A stretch of 64,000 nucleotides of DNA from Orobanche coerulescens (lineage: Eukaryota > Streptophyta > Magnoliopsida > Lamiales > Orobanchaceae), in contig CM065801.1 of NCBI GenBank assembly GCA_033398695.1, positions 46,696,358-46,760,357 of the forward strand, read 5' to 3'. Within the stretch, counting starts at the first letter, position 1. Each line of letters opens with the position of its first letter. Below, piece after piece: positions 1,830 through 64,000 of this stretch. The translations under genes were made by a program, and so were the position numbers. Below the pieces are notes generated by a model. That model was not told the origin of the DNA. It saw only the letters and a list, made by a program, of their open reading frames with translations, and did not search any database.

Positions 1830-1846
1830 TATGTTACTGTACATTA

Positions 1847-6298: not shown

Positions 6299-7779
6299 AA
6301 CAATGCACAACCTCACAAAACAACATTACACAATGTACGACAACAACAATGCACAAATGCATGACAACAACGATACATGAATGTACCACAACATGATCGA
6401 CACAAATGACAAAAATGATTAAAATACTTGCTCCGAGTCCTTTGAGACCAATCTTGATATCTAAACCATCACCAACCATTATTCTGAATATTCAACGATC
6501 CAAAATGTCACGGACGGTAGAGAATTCACGTCTTCGTCTATACCACAATGTATCTTCGATGCCAAGTATACCAACAACAAATGTAAATCATATACATTAT
6601 GATTTAATTCCGAGACTCGAATACAACTTATAATCCCAAATCTCCTGTGATTACGATTATAAATATTGCTATACGAATTATAAACGAATGAAACGGAAAC
6701 CATTCATTAAATATTATAAACTGAGCAAGTAATAACTTTCCTCGATACCGATGAAGTCGTTACAAAATCCTTGTCGTCATCTACGCACTCCTCATCCCCG
6801 ACCAAAGTAATCTACGAACATTCTCGAACATGACTGCAACGCATGGTTCTAATCACCGATCAATAATCTCAACCTATTACAATAATCGATAAACAATAAG
6901 TTCGATAACAATCAACAATCGATATAACCAATTCACAAACCCAATGGCTCAACAATATCTCAATTAACCACAAGTCTGATCAACCCAACTTAAACGATCA
7001 CGAATTCATAACCGAAACAGGATATACTACACTGCCTGTTGACTTAGTGCACATTAATCAGTTAACGTAGCGTGCGCTAAGTCGCTCCCGTTAGCGTGCG
7101 CTAGCTAGTAACACTAGCGTGCGCTAATGACATGCAGTTGCATGCATTTCAGATACCGATCAACATATGGCGATTATCAAGAACACTAAGTGATTCTAAA
7201 CCATGTTCATAGCTATCAAAACAACAAAATCCAATATCCTTTAACATATAGGTAATCATCTAACTCTTAATCCAATTCATATATTCATATATCATCTTCT
7301 TCCTCAAATATCAACATCATGAACACCAATAGCCCTAACAACACTTCCCTAATCTAACATTACAGAGATTAATCATCAACAATGACATCAACATCCGCAA
7401 AGGATGAGAAGGATTAACCAACTTATCTCAAGAAAACGAACTACACAATTCAACCCACATGAATCATATTAATATTATCATACTCCGGTAATCCATCTCA
7501 TAATCATGCTTGTCAGATTGTTTATGTAATAATCATCAACTCAAGAACATCAACATCCAATCCAAAACAAAATCCAAAGATGAAGAGTAATTGCCTTTTT
7601 GAGGGAATAGATTGAATCCCAAGTTTGAATCAGTTTCCAATCGATTCCAAGCTTAATATTGTTATGGATGATTAACTCCACCATAATCCAGTGTTTGGAA
7701 CTTCAAACATCCCTCTAAGAACTCTCTTTATTGGTTGCAAGGAGAGATTGGACGAAATGAAGAATAATGGCCAACTGCA

Positions 7780-7782
<3 letters not shown>

Positions 7783-7815
<33 letters not shown>
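7783..7815. repeat. (TA)n microsatellite
   Basis: About 16 TA units between the palindrome array and the leader of the LARD 5' LTR. It marks the site that the TIR transposon occupies in the other LTR (766-1829). It may double as the TATA region. Confidence 0.9.
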
Positions 7816-7817
<2 letters not shown>

Positions 7818-7828
7818 ACATTATTAAC

Positions 7829-8330
7829 GTACGCTAACATCTTCATTTAACGTACGTTACAAGCTTAGCGTGCGCTAGCTGTCTTTGTTAGCGTGCGCTA
7901 TCGCAGTCCAGAGGCTACTGCCTAACTGCATACAATGATTTACGTACGTAATGCCCATGCAATAGCGTACGTAATTTCCTCTACTTAGCGTACGCAAGCC
8001 TTCAACCCTAGCGTGCGCCACTCATAGTTGACTTGCTACAGTCTTCACCTACCCTCGTGTCCCCACATGCCGAAAGCTCTGACAAGGATAAGATTCCCTT
8101 TGGACCGATCTAATGTTAGCGTGCGCTAACAATGTGCATTAGCGTGCGCTAACCCTTCACAACAAACATCCGTTGACCTTGTCGGCACACGCATCGAAAG
8201 TGACTGGGTCCACACATAGATTCCTTCTGATCTGGTCTGTACTAGCGTGCGCTATCCTTTACCATTAGCGTGCGCTAAACCTGCACGATAGCGTGTGCTA
8301 GGCATGTATATTAGCATGCGCTAATAATGC
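7829..8330 (-). promoter_or_regulatory. array of near-palindromic units, LARD 5' LTR
   Basis: Same order of about 14 units as 1847-2347, for example TTAGCGTGCGCTAA, TTTACGTACGTAA and TAGCGTACGCAA, with the TTGACTTGCTACA motif at 8028-8040. It lies just upstream of the TA-rich promoter region of this LTR. Confidence 0.7.
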
Positions 8331-8602
8331 TACACTTAGCCATTTTCAAGTATTCTTGTCCAACGTCTCGACATACAGAATACGAACATACGGCATACCA
8401 AATACACATACTCCTTCCAATAATATTCTCATATGGTACACACTATCCTCAAATGCAATTGTCGACCAAGTACGACAATTATACCAATACAGATGCCTCA
8501 GTCATTTAATTGTTTTATCCATACTGTATAGATTCCACGATGTACAATATAACTCGGATAAAATAATATTAAACAACAGTAGTAGAAGTTCCGGATATTA
8601 CA

Positions 8603-34311: not shown

Positions 34312-34904
34312 TGTAATATCCGCCAATTCGATTTCCGGTAATTTTTCTTTTTTGGCAAAAGTCCATTTTTACGACTTGCTTGGGACCATTTCGTCATCCT
34401 GAGAATGATTAATTCCACACTTTTTGACATCCAAGTTCGTTTCGGAGTCGTTTTGTTGAGTTCCGTGCTTTTTAGTGACTTTTCCGCTCTTGAGTCGATT
34501 CTTGCGAATCTCGTTCGAAACTCCTGTTTCGAGTTTCCTGTAAGTCTGTTTAACTTTGTTAGACGTGTTATGATCTTCGGTTTGGTTATTCGATCACGTA
34601 TCGTGATTTCCGAGCGTTTTGGGCCATTTTGTAATTTACCCAAAGTTATGGGTATCCGTATCTGTATTTGTTGTCTCGACCCTTTTCTTGGTCGCATATT
34701 ATTAATTATTGCATTACGTTTTCATTTCGAGTCGTTTATATCGTCCGCGAACTTTTCGTCGTGTTCGTTCCGTGCGTTTTCGGAAATCGAGGCGTCGGGT
34801 CGTGGCGGCTGAGCAGCTGGCCGGACCGGTGCGGCATCTTTGTCGGAATCTTGACCTTTGCCGAGCAGGCACGGCGAGAACCGCGTAAGCGCACACCTCT
34901 GGCC

Positions 34905-35310
34905 GGGCGCTGCGCGCGCTAGCTCAGCGATGTAGCGCCTGTTGTCAGTCGGCTCGGCGCCATCTCGGACTTGGGCAGAGGGGTTCTGAGGTTTTGGACT
35001 CAGGTAGGATCGGCAGGTAGCCCACGCTACTGTCGGTCGTGGCGCACGCTAACCGGCAGGGGTAGCGCACGTTGTCGGCCGACTAGCGTACGTTACCGGG
35101 ATGAGTTTGTTAGTCCAAAGGCTACTGGACAGGTCGACTAGCGCGCGCAGGCTTCCGGCCGTAGCGCACGCTAGTGGGAGTCGGGCGGACAAGTCATGGT
35201 CGGCAGAATTGGTCGGTGGTGCCGGGTCATGCGGGCCATGGCCGAGAGTGCTGGGCCGATACTAGCCGATAGCGCACGCTAGTCCGGGAAGGCTAGCGCA
35301 CGCTAGTTCC
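34905..35310 (+). promoter_or_regulatory. near-palindrome array, element A 5' LTR
   Basis: About nine units such as TAGCGCACGCTA (35160, 35269, 35293), CTAGCGTACGTTA and GTAGCGCACGTT lie in GC-rich sequence. The last unit is about 15 bp from TATATAAAT. Same orientation relative to the element as in the minus-strand LARD. Confidence 0.7.
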
Positions 35311-35912
35311 GGCCCAGTATATAAATGACAGAGCAGCCACTTTTTCATTCATTTTTCATTTTCTTTCTCTTCGGTCCGCGGCTAGAGCTTTGGAGGAGAT
35401 GAAGCCATGTTGTTAAACAACAAATCCATGAATTTTCTGAGTTTATATCACTGATCAATCATCCTATAACATCCTTTGATCCAGCGAATCAAGGTTAGAT
35501 CTTTAGAACCCTACTTTTGGGGAGATTTGGGGATTTTCGCGTTTTTGTCCGATTCATTCGGCTTTGCTGAGTAATTCATGATGAATATGATTAATCTTGT
35601 TGGTATTCTTAGTTTCCCTACGGATTCATGGTATATTTCGTGATTTTTACGAAATCGAGAGGGTTTGGTTGTGGTCCGCCCTCGTTGTCGTTTTTATACG
35701 AATATACATGAATCGTAGGCGGGTGTCCGGGCGTATTCCAATTCCGTATTCGTTTAGAATCTGTTGTGATTGTATTCTTCGAATCGTTAGGGTCGGTTTC
35801 GATGGTTCCTAGCATTCGTCGGCGACTTTCCATTCCGTTCGTTGCGTCGTCGACTATTCAAGGCAAGTATATATTTATGATTGTACGTTCTCGACTTTGA
35901 AAGTAAGTAATA

Positions 35913-36107
35913 TTGATGGTATGATATGAACGAACCGTTTTTACGGCATTCATAGATATATTGATGGCATAATATGAACGAACCGTTTTTACGGCAGTCA
36001 TATATGTATTGAAGGCATGATATGAACGAACCGTTTCTACGGCATTCATACATGTATTGACGGATGATATGAACGAACCGTTTCTATAGCATTCACATAC
36101 GTCTTGA
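35913..36107 (+). repeat. four tandem 48-bp units in the element A LTR
   Basis: Units start TTGATGG or TTGAAGG/TTGACGG at 35913, 35961, 36009 and 36057. Each contains ATATGAACGAACCGTTT and a small hairpin CCGTTTTTACGG or CCGTTTCTACGG. The fourth unit has decayed arms (TATAGC). Confidence 0.9.
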
Positions 36108-36648
36108 TGTGACACTATGAGATTTAGTTATTCCAGAATACTAGTCTTGAATTGATGAATTGACGGTTACACTTACTTTATTGTCGAGGAGTATTGTGTT
36201 TCATACTTGATATACTTGCACTAGCTATTCGACGGCTAACCCCTTTATGGGGGAAATACTTTTTATGTATTTCAGGTTCCAGGAGAGCGAACAGGCGGGT
36301 ATCGGGTCGGCATGAAGATGATGGGCAAGTGTGATACTGTGTCTTGTCTCCGGTTATCTTTTGGATTCCTCCATTCAGTGTTGTTGTACTGGAATGGATT
36401 TTAAATACTCGAGTATTGTATTTCAGTTTCCTTGATGTTCCGTCCTGTGTTGTCGAGGTATTGATTTGTGCAGTGATGTATATGGTTTCATTGGTTATGG
36501 TTTTGAATACCATTTGTATCGTCTTTCTTTCCATTGTATGTAGACCTTTTCGGTCAAGTTTTATAGTTCCGCGTATGTTTAGCCTTGTGGGTCCCACGGC
36601 GGGGCTCACGACGCTGTAATATACCCTGAATAACTTGGGGGTGTTACA

Positions 36649-37177: not shown

Positions 37178-40100
37178 TGTAATACCCTGAATTTTCGGAT
37201 ATATTTTTTTTTTCGTTTATTTGTTGGATGTCGTTGATGGATAATTGTGCTTGAGGATGATGTGAACGTATGACAATGTTACTGAATGCGTATATGTATT
37301 TATTGTGCCGTATGATCGTTTGGTATGTCGAGATGTTGGTAGAGAATAGCGGAAAATGGCTAAGTACAGCTACGTTAGCGCACGCTACAGGGTATGCCTA
37401 GTGCGTGCTAAGATATATACTTAGCGTACGCTACGGTGCATACTTAGCGCACGCTAAGAGGTTCGGTTACGTACGCTAAGGAGGACCCCTAATGTACGTA
37501 ACGACTTGCTGGGTTAGTTCTGGAAGGTGACCGACAGGTAGGCCCAGATTGACTTTTATATTCAGTTAGCGCACGCTAACGCATGTTGGTTAGCGCACGC
37601 TAACAACAGATCGCCAATAATGGAATCTTAGCTTTCGGCGGGTGGACCCATCCATGTTCGATGCGTGCCCAGATAAGGTCAGCGAGTGTTTGTCGTGTAG
37701 AGCTAGCGCACGCTAAAACCGTATGATTAGCGCACGCTAATTCCATATCGGTCAAAGGAATCCCGGTAATCGCGGATGCTTTCGGCATGTGGGGGCACGA
37801 TACTGTAGCAGGTCAACGACGATTAGCGCGCGTTAAGGTCGAGGAATAGCGCACGCTACTGAGCATTTCACTGTAGCAAGTCAACGCCTGTTAGCGTACG
37901 CTAATGCATGGGCATTACGTACGTTAGATGAATTTCAAAGCAATGTAGTAGCTTCTGGACTGCCCGATAGCGCACGCTATCAAGGAAGGATAGCGCACGC
38001 TAGTCCTGTAGCGCACGCTAAATATAAGGTCTAGCGCGCGCTAGTGATGTGTTTTATAAAGAGGATAGACGAGTGCTGAGAGGCATTTTGTCCATTCTCC
38101 TTCCTTCAGTCAATAGAGAGAACCTTGGGAAGTACTTGAAGTTCCTAAACATTGAGAGATGATTCTCTTAAACAAGATTAAGATCGAGAGCTCGGATTTA
38201 AGTATTGTTCTTGAAGTTTTTGATGATTCTTGGAATGGAGATCAATTATTCTTCTTCGTGATTCGTCCATACAAGGTAATCCTCGTATCCCTTTGATAGT
38301 GGTTCGTTTTTTTTAAGGATTACTACTTGGGAGGGAGTATGTTGGGAATCGTGTATTTTGATGTTCGTCTTATTTCAATGTAAATGCATAAATTGGCATA
38401 CTTTTATCCATTGCGTGAGTATTTTGAAATGGCTTTTGGTATTTTGCCAACTGAATTTTATTTTGTAAAACCGATTCCCTAAACTGAGTTTTTGGCATTT
38501 TGGCCTTGATCGTTTTGACGGTATTTGGAAAATGATTTTTTTTAGTATTTGAAAAATATTACCGTCATCGGTCTTTTTGGCATTTTTGAAATGACGTGGA
38601 AAATTGTGCTTAGCCTGGTAAATCATTGTGAGAAGGGTTTACGGCGTGTAATATTCCCAGGAGGATCTGGGGTGTTACAATTATGGTATCATGTGATAAT
38701 GTTATACGAGATTTATTGGAATTGTAATAAGAGATTTCGGATGTTGATATGATTATTGAGATCTTCTTCATATGATGATAACGGTATTGTTGCGATTCTT
38801 AAGGTTGTATGAATGGCATGATGAAGAAAATGGTAACATGGAGATATATACCTCGGATATATTGTTCTGAACGGGATTTCGGATATTTCGTGTTCTTGAA
38901 GAACTCTTGAATTATACGAGGTGATGAATTTTTTTTTAAGAAGTGTTGATGTTTTGAAAATGAATATGGAATATTCATATCTAGAGCTAAACTATGTGTT
39001 TGAAATAATATTCGTATAGGAATACGAATGTGATTATGAGTTTGATGAGACTATTATTCATCTCTGAATTTGGAAGCCCATACGTATGGAGCAAACGTTT
39101 AAGTCGAATGATTGGACTATTTGATAACCTTTTTAATAGGATTATCTATTGTTTTGAACCAGTCGGATGATTCGAATTGATGACGGTCATAAGTAAATTT
39201 TAACGATGGATTTACGAGAAGGGAACCTTATCAATTCGTATTTAAGAATTGAGTTTGGAACATTTAGACCCTTATTATTGGTCCCAATTGGTTGCTGATA
39301 TGATCATCATATTTCGACTCGTATTGTGGACAAGATTTGTAAGTGTCTGAGTTGGATTGTTCAGACTGTGATTAGTCGAGATATGGTGAAACGATTGAGT
39401 TTGTGGTTTGGTGGTATTGATATTGGTCGTCATCGAACCTGTTGATTATTAATCCTTCATTTTACAATAAGATATGATGTTTGATCGTGAATTATGACTG
39501 TTGTGTTGTGGTTAAGGTTGAAGGGTTCGTAGATTAACTTGGTTGAGACTGAGGAATTCGTAAGACGAAATCAACTGAATTGGTAACAGTTCGTTGTATT
39601 GATATCGAGGCAAGTTTTATACTCGTACTAATCAATGAGACTAATGTTATCGTGTAGGTGTACGAATGTGTGTATCATTTCGAGACTTGGCCTCCTTATG
39701 ATTGTATTGATATCAGGGGATTGTTTGATACGACACCCGTCGACAAATTATGCCAAATGTTATTGTTGTTCGTAAACGGCCGATTGAAGGCATTGATGTA
39801 TTCGAATTTCATCTTCATTATCGGTAACTGATTTAAGTGTGCCGATACATCCGTTGTACCGTTGTTATCGAGTTGCCGTTCTAAGGTAACCGAAGTATTG
39901 AATTGGGACTGTCGAAGATAGTTCCCATCCGTTGAGTCGTTATCGATTGGTCGTTCGAAGACAATCGAGATATTGAATGGGGATCGCCGAGGATAGTGCC
40001 CATCTTTGAGTTATTATTGTCGTGTTGGCCGACTCAAGACAGCACACTATTATTCTGGTGAACTCGGTAATTTTGTGATCGTTGAGGGTGGAGGATTTCC

Positions 40101-40941: not shown

Positions 40942-41514
40942 TGTAATATCCGCAAATTCGATTTCCGGTAATTTTTCTTTTTTGGCGAAAGTCCGTTTTT
41001 ACAACTTGCTTGGGACCGTTTCATCATCCTGAGAATGATTAATTCCACACTTTTTGACATCCGAGTTCGTTTCGGAGTCGTTTTGTTGAGTTCCGTGCTT
41101 TTTAGCGACTTTTCCGCTCTTGAGTCGATTCTTGCGAATCTCGTTCGAAACTGCTGTTTCGAGTTTCCTGTAAGTCTGTTTAACTTTGTTAGACGTGTTA
41201 TGAACTTCAGTTTAGTTATTCGATCACGTATCGTGATTTCCGAGCGTTTTGGGCCATTTTGTAATTTACACAAAGTTGTGGGTATCCGTATGTGTATTTG
41301 TTGTCTCGACCCTTTTCTTGGTCGCGTATGATTAATTATTGCATTACATTTTCATTTCGAGTCGTTGATATCGTCCTCGAACTTTTCGTCATGTTCGTTC
41401 CGTGCGTTTTCGGAAATCGAGGCGTCGGGTCGTGGCGGCTGAGCAGCTGGCCGGACCGGTGCGGCACTGTCGGAAGTGCTGGACACTGGCCGAGCAAGCA
41501 CGGCAGGAACCGGC

Positions 41515-41930
41515 GTAGCGCACGCTACGTCCGGGACGCTGCGCGCGCTAGCTCGGCGATGTAAGCGCGCCGTCGAGTCGGCCAGCGTACGCCATCGGGC
41601 ACAGGCGAGAGGGTTACGAGGTTACGGACTCGGGTAGGATCGGCGAGTAGCGCACGCTCGCTGTCGGTCGTGGCGCACGCTAACCGGAAGGGTAGCGCCG
41701 CGTCGGCCGACTAGCGTGCGTTGGGATGAGTTTGTTAGTCCGCAGGCTACGGGCCAGTCGGCTAAGCGCGCGAGCTTCGGCCGTAGCGCACGCTAGCGGG
41801 AGTCGGGCGGACAAGTCATGGTCGGCGGGGTGGTCGGTGGTGCCGGGTCATGCGGGCCATGGCCGAGAGTGCTGGGCCGATACTGGCCGATAGCGCACGC
41901 TAGTCCGAGAAGGCTAGCGCACGCTAGTTC
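41515..41930 (+). promoter_or_regulatory. near-palindrome array, element A 3' LTR
   Basis: Eleven recognisable or damaged units, for example GTAGCGCACGCTAC (41515), GTAGCGCACGCTAG (41783) and CTAGCGCACGCTAG (41913). Several units intact in one LTR are damaged in the other. Confidence 0.65.
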
Positions 41931-42530
41931 CGGCCCAGTATATAAATGACAGAGCAGCCACTTTTTCATTTATTTTTCATTTCCTTTCTCTTCGGTCCGC
42001 GGCTAGAGCTTTGGAGGAGATGAAGCCATGTTGTTAAACAACAAATCCATGAAGTTTCTGAGTTTATATCACCGATCAATCATCCTATAACATCCTTCGA
42101 TCCAGCGAATCAAGGTTAGATCTTTAGAACCCTACTTTTGGGGAGATTTGGGGATTTTCGCGTTTTTGTCCGATTCATTCGGTTTTGCTGAGTAATTCAT
42201 GATGAATATGATTAATCTTGTTGGTATTCTTAGTTTCCCTACGGATTCATGGTATATTTCGTGATTTTTACGAAATCGAGAGGGTTTGGTTGTGGTCCGC
42301 CCTCGTCGTTTTTATACGAATATACATGAATCGTATGCGGGTGTCCGGGCGTATTCCAATTCCGTATTCGTTTAGAATCTGTTGTGCTTGTATTCTTCGA
42401 ATCGCTAGGGTCGGTTTTGATGGTTCCTAGCATTCGTCGGCGACTTTCCATTCCGTTCGTTGCGTCGTCGACTATTCAAGGCAAGTATATATTTATGATT
42501 GTACGTTCTCGACTTTGAAAGTAAGTAATA

Positions 42531-42722
42531 TTGATGGTATGATATGAACGAACCGTTTTTACGGCATTCATAGATATATTGATGGCATAATATGAACGAA
42601 CCGTTTTTACGGCATTCATATATGTATTGAAGGCATGATATGAACGAACAGTTTCTACGGCATTCATACATGTATTGACGGATGATATGAACGAACCGTT
42701 TCTACGGCATTCACATACGTCT
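42531..42722 (+). repeat. four tandem 48-bp units, element A 3' LTR
   Basis: Units start at 42531, 42579, 42627 and 42675, with the CCGTTT(T/C)TACGG hairpin in each except for one change (ACAGTTTCTACGG) in the third. Confidence 0.9.
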
Positions 42723-43267
42723 TGATGTGACACTATGAGATTTAGTTATTACGGAATACTAGTCTTGAATTGATGAATTGACGGTTACATTTACTTTATT
42801 GTCGAGGAGTATTGTGTTTCATACTTGATATACTTGCACTAGCTATTCGACGGCTAACCCCTTGATGGGGGAAATACTTTTTATGTATTTCAGGTTCCAG
42901 GAGAGCGGACTGGCGGGTATCGGGTCGGCATGAAGATGATGGGCAAGTGTGATACTGTGTCTTGTCTCCGGTTATCTTTTTGGATTCCTCCATTCAGTGT
43001 TGTTGTACTGGAATGGATTTTAAATACTCGAGTATTGTATTTCAGTTTCCTTGATGTTCCGGCCTGTGTTGCCGAGGTATTGATTTGTGCAGTGATGTAT
43101 ATGGTTTCATTGGTTATGGTTTTGAATACCATTTGTATCGTCTTTCTTTCCATTGTATGTAGACCTTCTCGGTCAAGTTTTATAGTTCCGTATATGTTTA
43201 GCCTTGTGGGTCCCACGGCGGGGCTCACGGCGCTGTAATATACCCTGAATAACTTGGGGTTGTTACA

Positions 43268-45841
43268 ACAACAAATGATTTGGGCCCCCCGAACTAGTAT
43301 CCCTCGAACCCTTTGCCGTCAACATGCTCTTCCCGTGCCTTGCCTTTGCCTCGACCTAAAATACAACACAAGTATTTCGCCCATAACACAGGGTCAGATA
43401 TACATGATAATTAATTCTTCTGACATATACAATTCACATATATGGATCTCAAGGAAACATCCCGACTATTAATCATACCCCTCGGGCGTATGAAACAACC
43501 AGTCACAAACCGTCGAACACATCCAATCATACATGGACTATGAACGATTAACAATATGGCTCAAGATAGACATCACAGTACGCCCGATCCGGAAATGTGT
43601 CCGTGTACATGTCCACCCCATATACGGAATCCAGAATATACGTGTGACAATGTACCTAATTAGCCTCACGAACTACGTCTCGTGTGCACATTCCAATACG
43701 GAAACATCCACGTATGACTATACAAGTGCCCGGCTAAAAATCCTACACAATATCCAATCGGCACGCAGATATGATTCCAGAAATGTCACGATACAACATG
43801 ACAACGAATTCAACGAAATACATATCCGATTAAGGATCAAGAAAAACTCACCAAATTGATAATAAGGACCATCAAGATCAACGATTCAAAGTGACGTACT
43901 TGGGAATGCAACCCCATGATGAAAATAGAATAACGTCAAAATGTCAAATCACGACAAACATTTCATAAACATTTCATACACATGAAATGTATAAACATAA
44001 CAAGAATCTAATCCTCATTATAACCAAGCAAGATAACTTGCCTCAATACGGAGACGAGAATAATCCTCTTCTTGTCGAAACGAACGAACGGTCCTCGACT
44101 AATATCGTTTACTCGAACAATCAACCTTAAACGGAATACATTTTACTCAATAACATATTCGTATAATTATCAATATAGGATTAGTAAGACGACACCCTAC
44201 AATCCAGTAGAATAGTTTCGCTATCTCAAAATATCGAAGTCTTATACCAAGAATTCTTTTTACCTCAATACAACCATAAAATCGGTTCACAATACTTCTA
44301 CCAAAAGTTCACATGATTCTTCATAAATAAGAATTTTATCAAGAACATGTAAAACAACCACTTATGTTGTCAATATCATCTTATGTTGATTAAACTTTCC
44401 AAAACATTACAATGTTGAAAGGTAAAATCTGCACAATTATGTTCATCAATACATCTCATCTAAATTGAATATTAAGCTTACAACAAGGTTATATTAGTTA
44501 TGAGATTACACCATATTCATGAATGTTATCAAAATCATTCTTACAAATTCACTACCTTAAGAACACCACAAGATGATCAAACACATTCTTAGGTTATCAA
44601 CACATCCGGTTAATAAGAAGTTATTGTTGTTTTCACAATATCCTTATCAATCTTCAAAGTCTTGCTGGGCTGAAACATAAGGAGGTTATAACTCTTAAGA
44701 ATTCTGAACAAGAGAACATCCTCCTACTTCTAACATTGCCAAGTTCTTCCCAAGGTAAGTGAATATCAAGTATGGTGTTTGAACACTTTATGATAACAAT
44801 TTCATTGTTCAAGTCTAACCATGATGAAGCTAACTAATTTATCAAGGTTCTACTGATATGAATTCGTCCAGCAAGGTGAGCATGAAGATTCTAAACATGG
44901 TTACTATCATTATAACCTCAAGAACACATCTATTTCAAACCCTCTTTATCATATTCATCAAGAAGTGTGAAGAAGTTTAATTAATACCATGTTTTACTTG
45001 ATTAATCTAACTTTAGGTGAAGTATACTTCATTACCAACATCAACATATTAAAACAATACAGAGAAGAAAGTACACCTACCTCCAGAAACGAAGAACAAC
45101 CTCAACACTACAAGAAAGTACACTCCAAGCTCAAGAACACCTCCTAATCTTCAAGGTAATGGGCTCCACTCCAAGATTTAAGGCTTAAACACAAGTTGGA
45201 GGAGGTTGATATCGATTTGGGGGTGCAGAGGGACAATATATGAAGAGAAAATCGGTTTAGAGTTGTGAAGAAGTGAAAAACAGGTTGGTCATATAAATAG
45301 ACTGTACCGGCTTAACGTACGCTATCGGGGAAAGCTACCGTACGTTAACTCTCTTACGTACGCTAACCGGTTAATGTTACATACGTAAGCGGCTTACAGT
45401 GGCTACTGTCTTGAATCCGCAGGCCATTAGCGCACGCTAATTAAAAGGGTGCTACGCATGCTAATAAAAGTTGACTCTGGCCGACACGACAGCTCAGACA
45501 TCATACACATGCATGCCAACGGATAACAAGTTCACATGCTGAAGTCAACTTATGTCAGATTCCTTCTTAACGTATGCAATAGATAAGGTATTACGTACGT
45601 TAAATCACAAGTTTAGCGTACGTTGGTTAAGCTACGTAGTGTACGCTACACTAACAGAAAAAGTTCAAAAATGCAACTCTCCAATTGACATCGAATCATC
45701 AAGTATGAAATGAAATGACAATGATATGAAGCTCAAATTTATAATACCTCAACATAATCCTAAATGCAACGATCCACGGTAATCAATTTATCCGAATATA
45801 CAACGACAGATAAAAACAAAAAATTACAGTCGGATATTACA
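43268..45841 (-). repeat. element C 3' LTR, main part
   Basis: Minus-strand LTR from TGTAATATCCGACTG at 45841 to the element A insertion; 43268-43272 is the right copy of the ACAAC duplication. Collinear with 50827-53418. Contains the palindrome array (45655-45310), a TATTTATATG box facing minus at about 45287-45297, and a long AT-rich downstream part. No ORFs of note. Confidence 0.85.
45310..45655 (-). promoter_or_regulatory. near-palindrome array, element C 3' LTR
   Basis: About ten units, mostly of the TTAACGTACGCTA, TTACGTACGTAA and TTAGCGCACGCTAA forms, ending just upstream of the TATA-like box in minus sense. C is the only pol-coding element here that carries the array. Confidence 0.7.
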
Positions 45842-45899: not shown

Positions 45900-46452
45900 A
45901 TCTCACTCGCATACTATCATCGGTTTCCCACGTAGCCTCCTCGACTCCATGTCGTGACTACTGAACCTTTAGTAGGGGAATCGTCTTGTTTCTCAACTGT
46001 TTGATCCTCCTCTCGAGTATCTGTACAGGACGCTCCTCGTACGAATGATCCTCCGCTAATTCGATCTCATCGAACTGAAGTATATGACTCGGATCAGCAA
46101 CGTACTTCCTCAACTGGGAGACATGAAACACATTGTGAATCTGACTTAAAGCCGGTGGCAAAGCCAGTCGATAAGCGAGATCACCTACACGCTCCAACAC
46201 CTCAAATGTGCCCATCGCACGATGAACTGCCTTCCAGAAGTGCAACACGAATCGCCCGTCACGATCCGATACAATACTCTTGTGGGTACCATGTAACCTC
46301 ATAATTTCCTTAATAAATAGCTGGGCCAATCTCTCGGGACCCCACGTGTCCTTAATCTCCAAGAAGTGGGCTGATTTGGTCAGACGGTCCACAATCACCC
46401 AAATTGTATTCATTCCTCGACGACTCGTCGGCAAGCTAGTGATAAAATCCAT
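45900..46452 (-). pseudogene. element C integrase with internal deletion and chromodomain-like tail
   Basis: Open from 46452 to 45958 (164 codons). It begins with DFITSLPTSRRGMNTIWVIVDRLTKSAHF (first aspartate, in pieces) and SIVSDRDGRF (second). After HRAMGT it jumps straight to [18 protein letters not shown]. The block that normally lies between, with the catalytic glutamate (DGQSERT) and the YEALYGRK region, is missing in frame, about 150 residues by comparison with element F. A chromodomain-like tail follows (QLRNKTIPLLKVQ, stop at 45958, then EEATWETDDSM). Strand transfer should be impossible. Confidence 0.8.
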
Positions 46453-47265
46453 CGATATATCCTCCCATTTCCACTCGGGAATCGGGAGCGGTTTCGGATT
46501 CTGCGGAGTCGGTGCTCAATCTTAACTCTTGTGAGTTAAACATCTCGAAACGAATTCGGCAACCTCACGTTTCATATTCCCCCACCAATAATTTTGCTTC
46601 AAATCCTTATACATCTTGCTAGATCCCGGGTGAATAGAGTACGGGGTAGCATGGGCTTCTCTCATAATAGAGTTCCTCAACTATTCGTCTGCGGGTACAC
46701 AAACTCGATTTCTAAAGCGTATCAATCCATCCTCGTGGATCACGAATCCAGGGGCTTTCCCTTGAGTTACTTCATCCCGAACTCGAGATAAGAATGGGTC
46801 CGTAACTTGCTTCGATCTGATCATATTATCAAGAGACGAAGAAATCTCAAGTGTGCAAAGTTTTCCCTGAACACGCTTTAACCAAACTTCAATTTCCGGC
46901 CTCATAAGGTCTAACTGCAACTCCCTCTGTGCTGTCAAGCGGCTCAGCATCTGCTCCTGCACTGTCTTACGGCTCAAAGCGTCGGCAACCACATTTGCTT
47001 TGCCCGGATGATAAAGGATCTCGATATCACAGTCCTTGATTAATTCTATCCACCTTCTCTGCCTCATGTTCAACTCCTTCTGAGTAAAAATGTATTTTAT
47101 GCTCTTGTGGTCAGTAAAGATCTGGCAGGTAACTCCATACAGATAGTGACGCCAGATTTTCAAAGCAAACACCACGACTGCTAGCTCTAAGTCGTGAGTC
47201 GAATAGTTACCTTCATAGGGTCTCAATTGTCTCGATGCATAGGCAATCACTTTCCCTTCCTGCAT
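46453..47265 (-). pseudogene. element C RNase H and integrase N-terminal part
   Basis: Open at 47265-46681 (194 codons): [55 protein letters not shown] and [16 protein letters not shown] are gypsy RNase H motifs. Sequence after 46681 continues in other frames as the zinc-finger part of integrase (EAH, HPGSSKMYKDL, YWWGNMK). A stop at 47281-47283 separates it from RT upstream. The RNase H acidic residues are present in the pieces. Confidence 0.8.
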
Positions 47266-47283
47266 GAGTACACATCCAAGGCC

Positions 47284-48129
47284 CTATCTCGACTCGTCAC
47301 TGTACACCACGAATCCTTCCGTTTCTTTTGGTAAGACCAAAACAGGTGCCGAAATCAATCGACTCTTGAGCTCATCAAAACTTTGCTGACATGCTTTTGA
47401 CCACAAATACTTCTTATCCTTCCGCAGTAGGTTAGTCATTGGTTGCGCAATTTTGGAAAATCCTTCCACGAACCGTCGGTAGTAACCCGCTAGGCCGAGG
47501 AAACTACGAACGTCCTTAACGTTCTTCGGAGGTAGCCAATCTCGAATGGCTTCTGTCTTCTGTGGGTCCACTCTCACTCCTTCGGCTGATATCACATGCC
47601 CAAGAAAGATAACTTCAGGCATCCAGAATTCACATTTAGAAAACTTCCCATAAAGCTGTTCCCGCCTCAACGTATCGAGAACTTGGTGGAGATGATGTTC
47701 ATGCTCTTCATGGTCACGAGAGTAAATCAGAATGTCGATAATAAAAATGACTACAAAGCGATCCAGATAGTTAATAAAAACCCAATTCATCAACTCCATG
47801 AATACCGCCGGTGCATTAGTCAATCCAAATGGCATCACCACGAACTCATAATGCCCATAGCGAGTACGGAATACTGTCTTCGAGATGTCAGACTCTCGAA
47901 TCCTCAACTGGTGATAACCGGATCTCAATTCGATCTTATAAAACACAGCAGCTCCCTGAAGTTGATCCAATAAATCATCAATACGAGGCAGAGGATATCT
48001 GTTCTTGATGGTTACCCTGTTAAGCTCACGGTAATCAAATAAACGCAGAGATTCGTCCTTCTTTCGTACAAATAACACTGGTGCTCCCCAAGGGGACGCA
48101 CTAGGTCGAATATAGCCGTTTTCAGTCAA
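47284..48129 (-). pseudogene. element C reverse transcriptase
   Basis: 281 codons: [61 protein letters not shown] and [11 protein letters not shown] are the expected gypsy RT blocks, ending at the RNase H edge. The catalytic box reads FIID (47745-47734) where FIDD is usual, losing the first aspartate, and two residues before DYRELN are missing (RLFDYRELN for a usual [10 protein letters not shown]). The N-terminal piece is fused to gag-protease in another frame (see 48134-50122). Likely inactive. Confidence 0.85.
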
Positions 48130-48133
48130 CTCC

Positions 48134-50122
48134 TCAAAGCTGGTTCTTCAACTCCTGCATCTCAGTCGGAGCCATACGATACGGTGCCTTTGAAAGCGGG
48201 GATGTACCTGGCTCTAACTCAATAATAAACTCCACGTCACGATGAGGAGGTAAGCCTGGCAACTCGTCTGGAAATACGTCTGGGTAGTCTCGGACTACCG
48301 GAATGTCGGCCAATTCAAATGGTCGATCTGCTGTTTTGGTCATGTAGCACCAATAACCAATACACCCTTGATTAAGCAGTTTCACTGCTTTCATAGCGCT
48401 GATGACTCTCCCGGAACGACTGGGATTATCACCTAAAAAAATACACTTGAAACTATCATCAGAAGTGACGGTTACCATATGCTTGCGGACACTAAGTATG
48501 GCATCATGACGATTCATACAATCGATACCCAAGATTATATCATCCTTAGGTAAATCAACTACAATCAAATTTGACAACCACTCACGGTCGTTCATACGAA
48601 TCGGACAGTCTTGGACTTCGCGATTCCCAATAATTCTTCTACCATCGGGTAGACCAATCACATAGGGCTCACAATTGATAACATGGTCTAGAGGCAAACA
48701 ACTTAAACAAGAAGTAGATATGAAAGAGTGTGAAGCACCGGTATCAAAAAGAACACACACCGGCTGAGAGTGGATCTCGAGTATACCTGCAATCATGCTG
48801 GCCTCGGGATCGTCAGCTTTCTTCATTTCGTAGATCCTGGGTTTTGCGGCTCCTGCACCATGTGCACCACTTTGATTCCCACGACCCGTTCCCCTGTTTG
48901 CCGCGGTAGTCTGATAAGAAGCGGACGGAGGCACACGGTCCTGGACAATAGACTGATTTGGAGTATGAGATGCCACTGGTTCACGTCCGGGCCCATTTCT
49001 GCAAAAACGAGCACGATGCCCATTCTTCCCACAAGTATGGCATGCGACGGCCGGCTTCGGGCATTTGGAGCTGACGTGCCCCTGGTCTCCGCAGTTATAG
49101 CACACAACAGATGAGGGGATTGCTTGAGAGTGCAATCCGGATGGCTTCGACTCCATGGGTGGTCGATCAGAAGGGTTTGGCAATGACTGGGGCTTCCTAA
49201 ATGTCCCCTGGTTACTCTCAGTCTGGTTCTGGTTCCTGGATCTTTTGTTGTTGGACTGTGGTTGCTTCTTAGAAATCTCCTTCGCCGTGAGCTCGTATTC
49301 TAGAGCCTTCTCGATGAACTCCGGCAGGGTCGTACAGTGGTAATTCAACAGTTGCATTCTCATTCGGGGTTTAAGCCTCTTGAGAAAGTATTTGATCTTA
49401 TCAGTCTCTGTTCGGATAATTGTCGTGGCGAAAGGAAGAAGTGCCTGAAATTTCTCAGCGACAGATAGTACATCATCATCCTCGGACGGGTCCGGGTTTA
49501 GTAATTCCGACAGTTTGGCCTCACGGAGTGGCCCTGGATAGTAACGGTCTAGCATGAGGTTTTTAAATTCCTCCCAAGTATAAACACCATCAGCTGGCCT
49601 CACTGAAAGCCACCAGGTATGAGCGCATTTGCTATGATAGTAAGTGGCTACAGAGACGCGGTTCTCTTCCGGGCAGTCCACCATCTCGAAAAGTTTCTCA
49701 AAATGCTCGATCCAATGCACAATGTCAGCGGGCTCAGAGGAGCCTTCAAAGGTCATAGGTCGCTGGCGAGAGATGTCGCTGATGATCCGACTCACGGGTC
49801 CGCCAAGCACAAGAGGAGGATGAGGCCCCTGTTGCTGGCCAGTAGTGGCCCTCTGCATAGCTTCGATTAATTGACCCATCTGGGTCATCTGAGTCATCAT
49901 GTCCTGCATCACAAAGTAAGGATCGACACGCGCATCCTCACGCCCACTGTGGTGCGATTGGTCCCTAGAAGATGAACCACTATCTGCGGAACTATGATCC
50001 ACATTCGCGCGTCTGTTGGCTCGAGGTATCGGGATTCGGCCCCTTCCGCGGCCTCGTCCCCCTCTGCCACGACCTCTCAGATTCCTTTCCATACTGAAAG
50101 AATCAATCATAATGATAATCAT
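48134..50122 (-). CDS. element C gag-protease polyprotein, 662 codons
   Basis: The longest intact frame of the window. Met11 ([12 protein letters not shown], near 50092) is the likelier start, since relatives begin with an RGRG-rich stretch. Gag capsid domain at about residues 125-265 ([24 protein letters not shown]); two CX2CX4HX4C zinc knuckles at 341-354 ([14 protein letters not shown]) and 361-374 ([14 protein letters not shown]) that bind element RNA; aspartic protease with the DTGA active site at 460-463; then the start of RT ([12 protein letters not shown]) before a stop at 48134. RT continues four bases away in another frame, so either a frameshift mutation or a programmed shift separates them; a mutation is simpler. 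Confidence 0.88.
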
Positions 50123-50536
50123 AAGTACAGTTCAAGACACTATTCAAAATTCATGCTAAGTTAATAGCAACAAGGGATCACATATTCAAGGAAGAGGTTC
50201 ATAATTAATTATCGACACCACGAGTGTCGCACAGAACATTACATCGACGTCAAGTCGAACAATTTCAATCATATAATCAGTCCAGCATTTATCTCGAATT
50301 ATTAATCAGATAAATCATGCCACAAATCCTCAAAATAACAAGATCAACAAAGAGATCCATTCCGATATCAATATCATGCCAGTAATTAAATCATGGCTCA
50401 TAAAGTACATACCGTATTTGGCTCGTAGGGTCAGTAGCTTGCACAGGTCACACGTGACACGAAGGTCTTTGGATACTAGTTCATTATACAACAACTCTTA
50501 AAGAGAAACAAAACAACACTCTCTGATACCATATTC
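50123..50536 (-). other. element C leader with PBS
   Basis: The PBS TGGTATCAGAG at 50531-50521 lies five bases after the LTR end and matches the initiator tRNA-Met complement over its first 11 bases. The 400-bp leader to gag holds no ORF. Confidence 0.8.
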
Positions 50537-53418
50537 TGTAACACACCAAAAAGGTGGCTTATTACAGTGCTGTGGACCCCACACTGGGACCCACCAGGCG
50601 ATATCCAAAACAGATTAAATAAATATTACTTGTGATACCGAACCACAATAAATAGTTATTACTCCGGTTAGGAGTTTATTAAAAATATGGCTAACGGCCT
50701 TGCAGGATCCGAAATACAAGTATAAACCATATGGAGATGGAATATACTTCAAATACCAATACAACCAAATAGTAATTTAAATGAAGCGGAAATAAGGTAA
50801 CTTTACATGGTTTAACATAATCGGACAACAAATGATTTGGGGCCCCCAAACTAGTATCACTCGAACCCTTCGCCGTCAACATGCTCTTCCCGTGCCTTGC
50901 CTTTGCCTCGACCTAAAATACAACACAAGTATTTCGCCCATAACACAGGGTCAGATATACATGATAATTAATTCTTCCGACATATACAATTCACATATAT
51001 GGATCTCAAGGAAACATCCCGACTATTAATCATACCCCTCGGGCGTATGAAACAACCAGTCACAAACCGTCGAACACATCCAATCATACATAGACTATGA
51101 ACGATTAACAATATGGCTCAAGATGGACATCACAGTACGCCCGATCCGGAAATTTATCCGTGTACATGTCCACCCCGTATACGGAATCCAGAATATACGT
51201 GTGACAATGTACCTAATTTGCCTCACGAACTACGTCTCGTGTGCACAGTCCAATACGAAAACATCCACGTATGACTATACAAGTGACCGGCTAAAAATCC
51301 TACACAATATCCAATCGGCACGCAGATATGATTCCAGAAATGTCACGATACAACATGACAACGAATTTCAACGAAATACATATCCGATTAAGGATCAAGA
51401 AAAACTCACCAAAGTGATAATAAGGACCATCAAGATCAACGATTCAAAGTGACGTACTTGGGAATGCAACCCCATGATGAAAATGGAATAACGTCAAAAT
51501 GTCAAATCACGACAAACATTTCATAAACATTTCATACACATGAAATGTATAAACATCACAAGAATCTAATCATCATTATAACCAAGCAAGATAACTTGCC
51601 TCAATACAGAGACGAGAATAATCCTCTTCTTGTCGAAACGAACGAACGGTCCACGACTAATATCGTTTACTCGAACAATCAACCTTAAACGAAATACATT
51701 TTACTCAATAACATATTCGTATAATTATCAATATAATATTAGTAAGACGACACCCTACAATCCATTAGAATAGTTTCGCTATCTCAAAATATCGAAGTCT
51801 TATACCAAGAATTCTTTTTACCTCATTACAACCATAAAATCGGTTTACAATACTTTTACCGAAAGTTCACATGATTCTTCATAAATAAGAATTTTATCAA
51901 GAACATGTTAAACAACCACTTATGTTGTCAATATCATCTTATGTTGATTAAACTTTCCAAAACATTACAATGTTGAAAGGTAAAATCTGCACAATTATGT
52001 TCATCAATATATCTCATCTAAATTGAATATTAAGCTTACAACAAGGTTATATTAGTTATGAGATTACACCATATTCATGAAGGTTATCAAAATCATTCTT
52101 GAAAACCTGAAAGATTCATTAATATCATTTCTGATCAAACACCACAAGATGATCAAACACATTCTTAGGTTATCAACACATCCGGTTAATAAGAAGTTAT
52201 TGTTGTTTTCACAAATATCCTTATCAATCTTCAAAGTCTTGCTGGGCTGAAACATAAGGAGGTTATAACTCTTAAGAATTTTGAACAAGAGAACATCCTC
52301 CTACTTCTAACATTGCCAAGTTCTTCCCAAGGTAAGTGAATATCAAGTATGGTGTTTGAACACTTTATGATAACAATTTCATTGTTCAAGTCTAACCATG
52401 ATGAAGCTAACTGATTTATCAAGGTTCTACTGATATGAATTCGTCCATCAAGGTGATCATGAAGATTCTAAACATGGTTACTATCATTATAACCTCAAGA
52501 ACACATCCATTTCAAACCCTCTTTATCATATTCATCAAGAAGTGTGAAGAAGTTTAATTAAAACCATGTTTTACTTGATTAATCTAACTTTAGGTGAAGT
52601 ATACTTCATTACCAAAATTAACATATGAAAACAATACAGAGAAGAAAGTACACCTACCTTCAGAAACGAAGAACAACCTCAACACTACAAGAAAGTACAC
52701 TCCAAGCTCAAGAACACCTCCTAATCTTAAAGGTAATGAGCTCCACTCCAAGATTTAAGGCTTAAACACAAGTTGGAGGAGGTTGATATCGATTTGGGGG
52801 TGCAGAGGGACAATATATGGAGAGAAAATCGGTTTAGAGTTGTGAAGAAGTGAAAAACAGGCTGGTCATATAAATAGACCGTACCGGATTAACGTACGCT
52901 ATCGGGGAAATTTAGCATACGTTAACTCTCTTACGTACGCTAACCGGTTAATGTTACGTACGTAAGCGGCTTACAGTGGCTACTGTCTTGAATCCACAGG
53001 CCATTAGTGCACGCTAATTAAAAGGGTGCTACGCACGCTAATAAAAGTTAACTCTGGCCGACACGACAGCTCAGACATCATACACATGCATGCCAACGGA
53101 TAACAAGTTCACGTGCTGAAGTCAACTAATGTCAGATTCCTTCTTAACGTACGCAACAGACAAGGTATTACGTATGTTAAATCACAAGTTTAGCATATGT
53201 TGGTTAAGCTACGTAGCGTACGCTACACTAACAGAAAAAGTTCAAAAATGCAACTCTCCAATTGACATCGAATCATCAAGTATGAAATGAAATAACAATG
53301 ATATGAAGCTCAAATCTATAATACCTCACCATAATACTAAATGCAATGATCCACGGTAATCAATTTATCCGAATATACAACGACAGATAAAAACGAAAAA
53401 TTACAGTCGGATATTACA
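50537..53418 (-). repeat. element C 5' LTR
   Basis: 2882 bp, from TGTAATATCCGACTG at 53418 to TGTTACA at 50537. Close match to the split 3' LTR. It has the palindrome array, a TATTTATATG box (about 52867-52876, minus sense) and a long tail related to segment B (40258-40600). The 63-codon and similar ORFs are chance. Confidence 0.88.
52888..53230 (-). promoter_or_regulatory. near-palindrome array, element C 5' LTR
   Basis: Same ten-unit order as 45310-45655, for example TTAACGTACGCTA, TTACGTACGCTAA, TTACGTACGTAAG and GTAGCGTACGCTAC. A few units carry point changes (TTAGTGCACGCTAA here against TTAGCGCACGCTAA in the other LTR). Confidence 0.7.
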
Positions 53419-61077: not shown

Positions 61078-61439
61078 TGTAATATCCTAGAATTTCACTC
61101 TGAATCTTTCGCATTATTTTATCTGGGATGTACTGTACAAAGTGGGACCGACACGATATGAGTGGATAATTTTGGAAACCGTGATAGTCGTGCCAGTATA
61201 TCTATCGAGGTTATTTATAATTCTAGGATATTACATGCTTGGTGTGTTTTCGATGTCGGAGATACCGTATGAGTATTTGTATGATTGCCGTACTTGGTCG
61301 ACAGTTGTAATTGAGGATATCGTGCATCAGATGTATCATATGGAAATGTTATCGGAACGAGTATATGTATTCGGTATGTCGCGTGTATGTGTTCAGTTTA
61401 TTGAGATGACAGACAGGGGCAGAAATGGCTAAGTATGAA

Positions 61440-61842
61440 AGCCATTACGTACGCTATGTAAGGAGCCTTACGTACGTAAGTAAGCAGGATTAACGTACGT
61501 TTAGGAATGTACATTACGTACGTTACGAAGGGATTCGGACAGGATCGAGCCGTGGTCGGCAGGTGGGACCCGGTGTCGGCTGCTTTCGGCGCAGGATGTG
61601 GACAGGTGAGTCAACCTCGGCATTACGTATGCTATGCATGGCATATTATGTACGTAATATGGGATGATATTGTAGCAAGTCAACTGCTACATTACGTACG
61701 CTGTGGTGATGGTATTACGTACGTAACGTAAGGTACAAAATAGTACAGTTAACCCTGGATGACGATTACGTACGCTATACAGGACATATAGCGTACGTTA
61801 AAGGCCTTACGTACGTTAAGGTTGGGACTTAACGTACGTAAC
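61440..61842 (+). promoter_or_regulatory. near-palindrome array, element E
   Basis: Twelve units, almost all of the ACGTACGT form: TTACGTACGCTA, TTACGTACGTAAG, TTAACGTACGTTTA, TTAACGTACGTAACG. TGTAGCAAGTCAAC lies at 61671-61684. The last unit is about 15 bp from the TATA-like box. Confidence 0.72.
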
Positions 61843-63332
61843 GAGATGCGCAATTTTTATAATAAGAGTTGGTCTTTCATTTGTTCATGAAAGGAAGCTC
61901 ATTTCTCCCACCCCAGCTCGTCCTTCTTCACTTTTAAGTGTATTCTAGACTTTTAACTTGGTTAGGAGCTTGAGAGCATGAATTTGAGGCTCGGATATGA
62001 AGATGTTAATGATTCTTGAAGTGTTTGATCCTTGTGGTTCTTCTTCAAAAGGTATGATGATGAATTCTACTCCTTGAATTCGGATTTTGATGATAGTGTT
62101 GATGTTCTTCTCCGTATAGTGATGATTATGGTATTGATGTTATGATTTTGAGATTATACGAATCGTATATTGAAGAACAAAATGATACATGCCTTGGATT
62201 ATGTATCACATGATGATTAGATGTTAGAACACATATAATTACGTCGTTTTGTTGGCTTCAAACATGATTATGGAGTAATTCATGTTCTTGAAGAATTCTT
62301 GAATGATACATGTCCGTAAATTATAAGGATTACGGTTAATTTTGGTATATGATTATTCATGATGATAGCCGGTAATTGTATTCCTATGAATTTGCAAGAA
62401 TGAGCCATGTTAATCCGAATTTAAGATTTAAGTCGGAACCAAGAATGTTGTAGACGTTGATAGAACTATTGATTATCGAAATTCGGCTTGTGTTCGTATT
62501 GATAAGAGTTGATATGGTTTGATTTCGTATGATCGAGATACCGTTGAGTTTGATTGGTTGGTCATATTGGTTATTGATTGTTATTGAACGTATCGTTAAT
62601 TGATTATTGCATTAGGTTACGTTTAGTGATCGTTGATGTTAACCTCGCGATGCGGTTGAGGTTGGAGAATGCATGAATCGTCTTGGTCGAGGCTGAGGAG
62701 CTTGTAGATGAAGATGGCGGGATTGATAGCGGCTTCGTCGAATTGGTATCAAGGCAAGTTATGCTTGCTCAGTTCATAATGTTAATAAATGATTTCGTTT
62801 TCATTTCATTTATGATTCATATAGCAATGGCATTATGCAATATATGAATTGCCGGAATGGTGGTACGTATATTATGATTGGACTAAGATAAATCATAATG
62901 TATATGATTTTAAGGATGTCTAGTGGAAATGGGAACGTGAATTATAATTTGGACTATTGCATGAGAAGTTGGATATCAAGGTTAATTATCGTGTCGATGT
63001 TGAACTCGGGATGGTGGTTTGGTATTAGTTATGGACTGTACTTCATTTTGGATTGTCGGATAAACCGTGTATTCGTTCAAGTCGGTTGGTCGTGGAAAGG
63101 TTAGCGTCTCCAGCTTGAGGTAAATTAATATTGTTAGATTATGATAATCATCATGTTGCATTATTGCATGTGTGTTTATATTTCATGCGGTGAATGTGCA
63201 CCATCGTTTGTTACGTTTTGTGACATGCTCTTTCTTTGAGCCGTAATTTGTGGGGCCGATGTGTTGGGGATAAAACCTGTATGGTACCCGAATGGAAATG
63301 TGTTAGGGGATAAGACCTAAATGGCACCTATG

Positions 63333-63468
63333 TCCGGAGTATTCCTGATTAGATGCTTCTGTGACCCTCGGCTGCTGCCTTGGGAGTTTATGCGATATTT
63401 TCCGGAGTATTCATGAGTAGATGCTTTCGTGACCCTCGGCTGCTGCCTTAGGAGTTTATGTGCTATTA
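63333..63468. repeat. two tandem 68-bp units in element E
   Basis: Units start TCCGGAGTATTC at 63333 and 63401 and share GTGACCCTCGGCTGCTGCCTT and AGGAGTTTATG (in pieces). A few substitutions separate them. Confidence 0.85.
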
Positions 63469-64000
63469 TTATATGTATTGTTGAGCATGCTGTGAACTGT
63501 TGTCTGACGGAATACGACATTGTGGTTGTGTCGGTCTTTCATGATCCAGTTATTGTTGCCCTCTTGGAAAATCTTCTTATCCTTGTTGGATATGCATTTC
63601 TTTGAGATTGGTTGTCATGTTGTATCGTGGCATATCTGGAGTCAGATACGTTATGATCGTTCATGTGTAGGATTTTCGGGACGGGTACGTGTAGCATATG
63701 TTGGTTTCGACCTTATATTGAACCGTGCACACGAGACGTACTTCGTGAGGCTGATTAGGTACGAGACCAGACGTGTATTAATCAATACCCGTGGTTGGCT
63801 TGTACACGGACACTTGTGCGGATCGAGCGTATCGTGACGTCCATCTTGAGTCTTATTTATTGGTCGTTCACAGTCCATGTATAATTGGATCTGTCGATAT
63901 TCGGGTTGTGTTTGAAATCCCGTATATATGATTTGTATATGGTTGACGATTTTATTCTCTCGTGTATCTGTCAACATTGAACCCTTACTAATCTCGTTCG

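What the first reader, a model, noticed from the sequence alone, without database searches (positions are those of the whole stretch)
37370..38045. Arrays of oriented near-palindromes shared by the U3 of at least five LTR families
Seen: the LTRs of the LARD (1847-2347, 7829-8330), A (34905-35310, 41515-41930), B (37370-38045), C (45310-45655, 52888-53230) and E (61440-61842) each hold about 9-18 units fitting TTARCGYACGYTAA, ending shortly before a TATA-like box. The TAGCGCACGCTA form is not a perfect palindrome (its reverse is TAGCGTGCGCTA), yet it appears in the same orientation relative to each element on both strands. Spacers differ between families. Known: palindrome clusters upstream of TATA have been described in Sirevirus (copia) LTRs. 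Inference: a convergent or exchanged promoter array in Ty3/gypsy and LARD elements, with ACGT (bZIP-like) and GTAC (SBP-like) cores as possible binding sites.
Basis: partly seen in the sequence, partly recalled or inferred. Interest (0 to 1): 0.88.

Follow-up and report, generated by a model that had tools for sequence, protein, structure and literature searches.

The report
Spaced palindrome arrays in retrotransposon promoters
Five related plant retrotransposons in this window carry 9 to 18 short CG-rich near-palindromes just upstream of a TATA-like box, often exactly 23 bases apart, and these arrays likely serve as docking sites for a host protein that would switch the elements on.

Summary
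The arrays are real: 92 of 101 unit hits lie in eight U3 regions of five element types; random sequence gives about 3 per 64 kb. In the seven U3s with a TATA-like box the last unit ends 10-15 bp before it (E by eye).

(1) Convergence is not needed: the elements share LTR termini and, where readable, primer site and purine-tract block, and look like one Ty3/gypsy Del/Tekay-type lineage, probably from an Orobanchaceae relative. (2) Spacer sequences differ but lengths recur: LARD, B, C and E share a 23-18-23 bp ladder beside the TATA-like box (then 51 bp, 53 in B); A does not. (3) Orientation is shared by LARD, A and B (25 of 26 asymmetric units), reversed in C (2 of 2), undefined in E.

Between families the four TATA-proximal units stay 64-80% identical while spacers fall to 23-50%. 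Between the two LTRs of one insertion, units differ about as much as the rest (34/484 vs 114/1896). That fits selection in the replicating lineage, then decay. Best reading: a promoter-proximal platform for a host dimeric factor, a gypsy counterpart of Sirevirus repeated motifs. Binding and transcription are untested; the genome-wide search did not complete.

The parts
37178..38679 (+). B LTR (1,502 bp) inside A's internal region; array of 18 units 37375-38044, TATA-like box at about 38055
   Evidence: TGTAATACCC after a purine tract, GTTACA end before TGGTATCA; units
34312..36648 (+). A 5' LTR; array of 9 units 34909-35306, TATATAAA 11 nt after the last unit
40942..43267 (+). A 3' LTR; array of 9 units 41515-41927, TATATAAA 11 nt after the last unit; A has target duplication ACAAC and sits in C's 3' LTR
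50537..53418 (-). C 5' LTR (2,882 bp); array of 9 units 52889-53226, TATTTATA 12 nt after the last unit
43268..45841 (-). C 3' LTR, first part (rest at 34012-34311, split by A); array of 8 units 45312-45649
   Evidence: target duplication GCTTT
45958..50131 (-). C coding region: gag with zinc knuckle, protease, reverse transcriptase, RNase H, SH3_Tf2-1 tail
   Evidence: Pfam
5094..8602 (-). LARD 5' LTR (3,509 bp); array of 14 units 7824-8324, TATA tract 10 nt after the last unit
7044..7127 (-). second 4-unit module (spacings 23, 24, 23) about 700 bp downstream of the LARD TATA tract
1..2613 (-). LARD 3' LTR, cut by the window start and carrying a 1,069-bp insertion at 766-1834; array of 14 units 1847-2346
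61078..64000 (+). E LTR, runs out of the window; array of 11 TA-centred units 61444-61842, TATAATAA 15 nt after the last unit
   Evidence: starts where an RNase H match of another gypsy element ends

Best explanation
The arrays are most likely a promoter-proximal control region of one lineage of Ty3/gypsy retrotransposons, where a host dimeric DNA-binding protein is predicted to bind the CG-rich near-palindromes side by side and would switch on transcription from the TATA-like box 10-15 bp downstream. Shown: unit sequence, spacing, place before the TATA-like box, and stronger conservation of units than of spacers between families. Inferred: that a protein binds; that it is host-encoded; that it activates; and that the non-coding elements (A, LARD) keep the array so as to be transcribed together with a coding partner such as C. 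Each half-site reads about TWRCG, two of them facing each other across a 2-bp centre. The 23/18/23-bp ladder would hold neighbouring dimers in register with each other and with the TATA-bound complex.
For: 92 units in eight U3s, far above shuffles. Last unit 10-15 nt before the TATA-like box in seven of seven U3s that have one (E by eye). Exact 23-18-23 ladder in LARD, B, C and E, then 51 bp (53 in B). In the last 78 bp, units 0.64-0.80 identical between families and spacers 0.23-0.50 (six pairs), while after insertion units are not spared (34/484 vs 114/1896), as expected if only replicating copies are under selection. Two-fold symmetric unit suggests a dimer. Same layout as Sirevirus repeated motifs (PMC2829016).
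Against: No binding, expression or start-site data. A lacks the ladder. The ladder permutation tests are modest: p 0.008 for two pairs, 0.02-0.06 for four, uncorrected over 15 pairs. Units were found by their motif, which raises their identity. Over 129 ungapped bp the contrast is smaller (units 0.56-0.81, spacers 0.19-0.41). In LARD units differ less than the rest after insertion (0.046 vs 0.067), in A and C more. One 4-unit module lies downstream of the promoter. No single known site fits all units. An array-less gypsy LTR with a similar purine-tract block lies at 59176.
Confidence: 0.6

Rival explanations
1. The array is a silencing target or repressor platform: a CpG-dense patch that attracts methylation or a repressor and keeps the element quiet outside the tissue where it transposes.
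For: Array CpG observed/expected 1.14-1.67 against 0.89 for the window; 16 of 34 unit differences between LTR pairs are CpG-type transitions against 30 of 114 elsewhere, as methylation would give. BZR1, which binds CGTGCG, acts there as a repressor (PMC3343102, passages).
Against: A pure silencing target should be lost by successful copies, but units are the better conserved part between families. Strict place before the TATA-like box fits activation at least as well.
Confidence: 0.15
2. The units act in RNA, as small hairpins or a folded 3' end of the transcript (termination, dimerisation or packaging).
For: Predicted fold of the sense array is somewhat more stable than shuffles: z -1.7 (LARD), -0.7 (A), -3.0 (B), -1.9 (C), -2.7 (E). 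The two half-sites covary weakly within families (CMH z 2.0).
Against: Any palindrome array would fold this way. The single unit folds weakly (-3.2 kcal/mol for GC forms, -0.8 and 0 for ACGT forms), and the forms that dominate E fold least. Place is tied to the TATA-like box.
Confidence: 0.07
3. The array is a relic of a 23-bp tandem repeat, kept by copying and not by function.
For: 23 bp is the commonest spacing (28 of 56) and 18+51 = 3 x 23.
Against: The 9-bp spacers between 23-spaced units carry almost no common sequence (information 0.02-0.54 bits per column), while the units do; a relic would lose units and spacers alike.
Confidence: 0.1
4. The sites are read by a protein encoded by the elements themselves, an anti-silencing or activator protein (compare VANC proteins of VANDAL transposons, recalled, no call).
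For: One array type is shared by coding and non-coding elements, as a trans-acting system would need.
Against: In C's internal region the only frames of 150 aa or more are four gag-pol frames and one 158-aa frame overlapping gag-protease that matches no Pfam family.
Confidence: 0.06

Closest known systems
Sirevirus (Ty1/copia) repeated motifs (PMC2829016; passages and section 9 seen)
   Same: Short palindromic units, 8-32 per element, mostly in the first half of the LTR within a CpG-rich stretch shortly before a TATA box; near-identical within an element while the LTR around is very divergent; shared by elements with little other similarity.
   Different: Superfamily (Ty3/gypsy here); core is CGYRCG, not the CGG-CCG signature; no linker or env-associated copies tested; a bp-exact spacing ladder shared between families and a strand bias of asymmetric units were not in the parts of that paper that I saw.
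Del/Tekay LTR CpG islands (PMC4029996; abstract, sections 14, 15, 21 seen)
   Different: The islands were reported for monocot clusters; eudicot Del LTRs had none. No palindrome array appears in the sections seen.
RLG_Cereba/RLG_Quinta autonomous and non-autonomous pair (PMC11302176; passages seen)
   Same: Non-coding or partly coding partner recognised by shared LTR termini, primer site and promoter part.
   Different: Centromeric CRM-type elements; no palindrome array in the passages seen; partnership of A or LARD with C is inferred here.
BZR1 binding site CGTGCG (PMC3343102; passages seen)
   Same: 25 of 61 units hold CGTGCG or its complement.
   Different: 0 of 11 units in E and 1 of 9 in C5, so it cannot be the common binder.

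Membership tests
Sirevirus repeated-motif arrays | Palindromic units clustered in the first half of the LTR, upstream of a TATA box | tested here: met
   Units begin 192-597 nt after the LTR start and end 10-15 nt before the TATA-like box
Sirevirus repeated-motif arrays | CGG-CCG core | tested here: not met
   Core is CGYRCG in 53 of 61 units
Sirevirus repeated-motif arrays | Host element is Ty1/copia (Sirevirus) | tested here: not met
   C encodes Ty3-type capsid, RVP_2, RVT_1 and SH3_Tf2-1
Del/Tekay chromovirus | Ty3/gypsy gag-pol | tested here: met
   C only; A, B and LARD show no match to C's proteins
Del/Tekay chromovirus | Chromodomain at the integrase end | tested here: inconclusive
   No Pfam hit on a 50-residue tail broken by a stop; a resemblance to Tekay chromodomains is recalled only
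Del/Tekay chromovirus | U5 end with GGG at -8 to -10 (type A) | tested here: inconclusive
   Exact in A5, B and C3; not in A3, C5, LARD5
Del/Tekay chromovirus | Place in an RT tree | not tested
   No named reference set was held
Eudicot Del LTRs (cluster A) | No CpG-rich region in the LTR | tested here: not met
   Array CpG o/e 1.14-1.67 in all eight U3s; GC above 0.5 over about 400-670 bp in A and B. CpGplot itself was not run

The most novel reading that the evidence does not exclude
A whole guild of retrotransposons, coding and non-coding, keeps one spacing-coded operator, a bp-exact 23-18-23-51 ladder of dimer sites before the TATA box, that outlives the sequence around it and drifts between unit dialects (TA-centred and CA-centred) along with a host factor, so that non-coding elements fire together with their coding partner.
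Probability: 0.3. Interest if true: 0.72.

Novelty: new variant of a known kind. Interest (0 to 1): 0.52.

Why it matters
How plant retrotransposon promoters keep working while their LTRs diverge beyond alignment is largely open. Here spacing is kept to the base pair where spacer sequence is near random, which gives a testable grammar. If one host factor reads it, that would explain how non-coding elements stay co-expressed with coding ones, and would name a candidate driver of the Tekay load reported in Orobanche (PMC4381496, passages).

Tried and rejected
Convergence between unrelated families: not needed, since termini, primer site and purine-tract block are shared and E links LARD (U3) with C (downstream LTR part) by sequence.

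Random decay of a CGCGCG palindrome as source of the asymmetric units: would give CA and TG alike; seen 25 CA to 1 TG in LARD5, A3 and B, but 0 to 2 in C5. A binomial p was computed (8e-7 for 25 of 26, 3e-5 for 25 of 28), but units are related, so I do not rely on it.

bZIP (ACGT), SBP (GTAC) or BZR1 (CGTGCG) as the common binder: each fits only part of the units. NAC-type or VOZ-type half-sites are a recalled lead, from no call.

Wholesale homogenisation of units inside an array: at offset 115-117 LARD, E and B are alike TA-centred while neighbours differ, so units look inherited position by position.

Array relatives in other species: a protein search of a 70-aa frame over the B array found no candidate. 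Own-genome search: 11 requests, none answered.

Rows left out of counts: the 8 downstream LARD units and 1 isolated hit are not in the U3 counts; counts per 61 units and per 56 spacings use one LTR per family (LARD5, A3, B, C5, E); the identity test leaves A out because it lacks the ladder.

Full report
OBSERVATION. The window (64 kb, 40% GC) holds nested plant LTR retrotransposons. A symmetric matrix for the 14-bp unit finds 101 hits at score >=9, against a mean of 2.65 (max 7) in 20 Markov-1 sequences. Of these, 92 lie in eight U3 regions: 14+14 LARD, 9+9 A, 18 B, 8+9 C, 11 E. Two 4-unit clusters (18-101, 7044-7127) lie further down the LARD LTR and one hit is isolated. Because the matrix was trained on these units, two checks were made: shuffled U3s give means of 0.11-0.41 units, and a seedless count of repeated near-palindromic 10-mers gives 14 stretches with five or more copies, all on these arrays.

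ANATOMY. LTR starts were read from TGTAATAYCC and ends from GTTACA before a TGGTATC-type primer site. LARD is on the minus strand (5' LTR 8602-5094; 3' LTR from 2613, leaving the window). A is on the plus strand (34312-36648 and 40942-43267, target duplication ACAAC) and sits inside C's 3' LTR. C is on the minus strand (5' LTR 53418-50537; 3' LTR 45841-43268 continued at 34311-34012; target duplication GCTTT). B is a 1,502-bp LTR (37178-38679) inside A's internal region with no 5-bp duplication; how it came there is not settled. E starts at 61078 (plus strand), where the RNase H match of another gypsy element ends, and leaves the window.

CLASS AND HOST. C matches Ty3_capsid, zinc knuckle, RVP_2, RVT_1, RNase H and SH3_Tf2-1 models, so it is Ty3/gypsy. 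Long LTRs and termini resemble Del/Tekay elements (PMC4029996; abstract and sections 14, 15, 21 read), but GGG at -8 to -10 is exact in three of six LTR ends, a chromodomain was not confirmed and no tree was built. C's proteins match nothing inside A, B or LARD, and the four frames of 150 aa or more that touch A's LTRs match no Pfam family. The seven best gag hits of 73 are from Orobanche gracilis and O. minor, the first at 67% identity over 70% of the query (only the 7,989 candidates sharing most words were scored). The source is probably in or near Orobanchaceae, where Tekay elements are reported at about 10-13% of several diploid genomes (PMC4381496, passages).

UNIT AND LADDER. Of 61 units (one LTR per family) 53 read CGYRCG at the centre, flanked by about TWR and YWA; 32 contain neither ACGT nor GTAC. 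Of 56 neighbour spacings 28 are exactly 23, 33 are 22-24 and 4 are 18. Counted from the TATA-proximal unit, LARD5, C5 and E have units at 0, 23, 41, 64, 115; B at 0, 23, 41, 64, 117; A at 0, 24, then 132 (A5) or 131 (A3). Permuting the order of spacings gives p 0.008 for LARD-C and C-E, 0.02-0.06 for LARD-B, LARD-E, B-C and B-E, 0.10 for A's own two LTRs, and 0.15 or more for A against the others; these are uncorrected for 15 pairs. The last unit ends 10-12 nt before a TATA-like match in six of seven U3s tested, and 15 nt before TATAATAA in E by eye. In LARD3 an insertion of 1,069 bp has split the TATA tract.

ORIENTATION. In element sense CA-centred/TG-centred units number 9/0 (LARD5), 9/0 (LARD3), 6/0 (A5), 6/1 (A3), 10/0 (B), 0/2 (C5), 0/1 (C3), 0/0 (E). 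The shared orientation holds in three families, is reversed in C, and cannot be read in E.

SELECTION. In the last 78 bp, unit versus spacer identity is 0.80/0.50 (LARD-B), 0.71/0.27 (LARD-C), 0.79/0.27 (LARD-E), 0.64/0.23 (B-C), 0.68/0.27 (B-E), 0.73/0.27 (C-E). Over 129 bp without gaps the contrast is smaller (0.56-0.81 against 0.19-0.41), partly because B is shifted by 2 bp there. Between the two LTRs of one insertion, units differ at 9/196 (LARD), 13/148 (A) and 12/140 (C) bases, the rest of U3 at 40/598, 59/867 and 15/431: as a whole units are not spared after insertion, although in LARD they changed less and in A and C more. This is what selection on replicating copies followed by neutral decay would give. 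Caveat: units were found by their motif, which raises unit identity.

DESCENT. With units masked, U3 similarity exceeds 100 shuffles clearly for LARD-B, LARD-E and B-E; A-B is slightly above (19.5 vs 17.5), A-E ties (18.0), and LARD-A and all pairs with C are not above. C is linked to E by 74% similarity in the downstream LTR part. The LTR start joins all five types. Common descent is preferred to convergence; for A it rests mainly on termini. A further gypsy LTR (start 59176, minus strand) has a similar purine-tract block but no array, so the termini alone do not predict the array.

MECHANISM. Place, recurring spacing and conservation fit a promoter-proximal platform for a dimeric DNA-binding protein. 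Binding, activation and the host origin of the protein are inferred. C's internal region has no frame of 150 aa or more beyond gag-pol except a 158-aa frame overlapping gag-protease, without a Pfam match. CGTGCG, bound by BZR1 (PMC3343102, passages), occurs in 25 of 61 units but in none of E. RNA folding of the sense arrays is somewhat more stable than shuffles (z -0.7 to -3.0) and half-sites covary weakly (CMH z 2.0), so an RNA role is not excluded.

KNOWN. The design matches Sirevirus repeated motifs (PMC2829016; passages and section 9) in a different superfamily and with a different core. That paper calls its motif Sirevirus-specific against classic copia elements. Searches for palindrome arrays in gypsy LTRs and for the unit strings listed no report that I recognised as these arrays; I judged from listings and from passages of PMC10794571 and PMC11302176, and most subscription papers are not held. 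Eudicot Del LTRs were reported without CpG islands, unlike A and B here.

Noticed in passing
766-1834: A 1,069-bp insertion splits the TATA tract of the LARD 3' LTR; its nature was not worked out.
   Followed up: partly
35112-35127; 1928, 7905, 37946: A 16-bp block AGTCCARAGGCTACTG lies between units in A on the sense strand and in LARD and B (B with 2 mismatches) on the antisense strand: a second conserved element, inverted in A.
   Followed up: partly
61078-61235: The E LTR start TGTAATATCCTAGAATT recurs inverted 158 bp further on.
   Followed up: no
29325-29964, 33302-33907, 53419-53674, 56205-57825: A separate dispersed repeat in both orientations, partly in tandem.
   Followed up: no
17033-17566 and 27965-29368: Coding remnants of Ty1/copia-type elements (gag_pre-integrs, RVT_2, SH3_retrovirus); none of the unit arrays lies there.
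   Followed up: no
13426-14476, 30197-31481, 59229-61077: Diverged gypsy pol remnants, local matches 31-69% identical to C.
   Followed up: partly
36649-40941: A's internal region holds a purine-tract block, the B LTR, a primer-site start and a stretch 85% like C's downstream LTR part: a composite that may have arisen by template switching (inference).
   Followed up: partly
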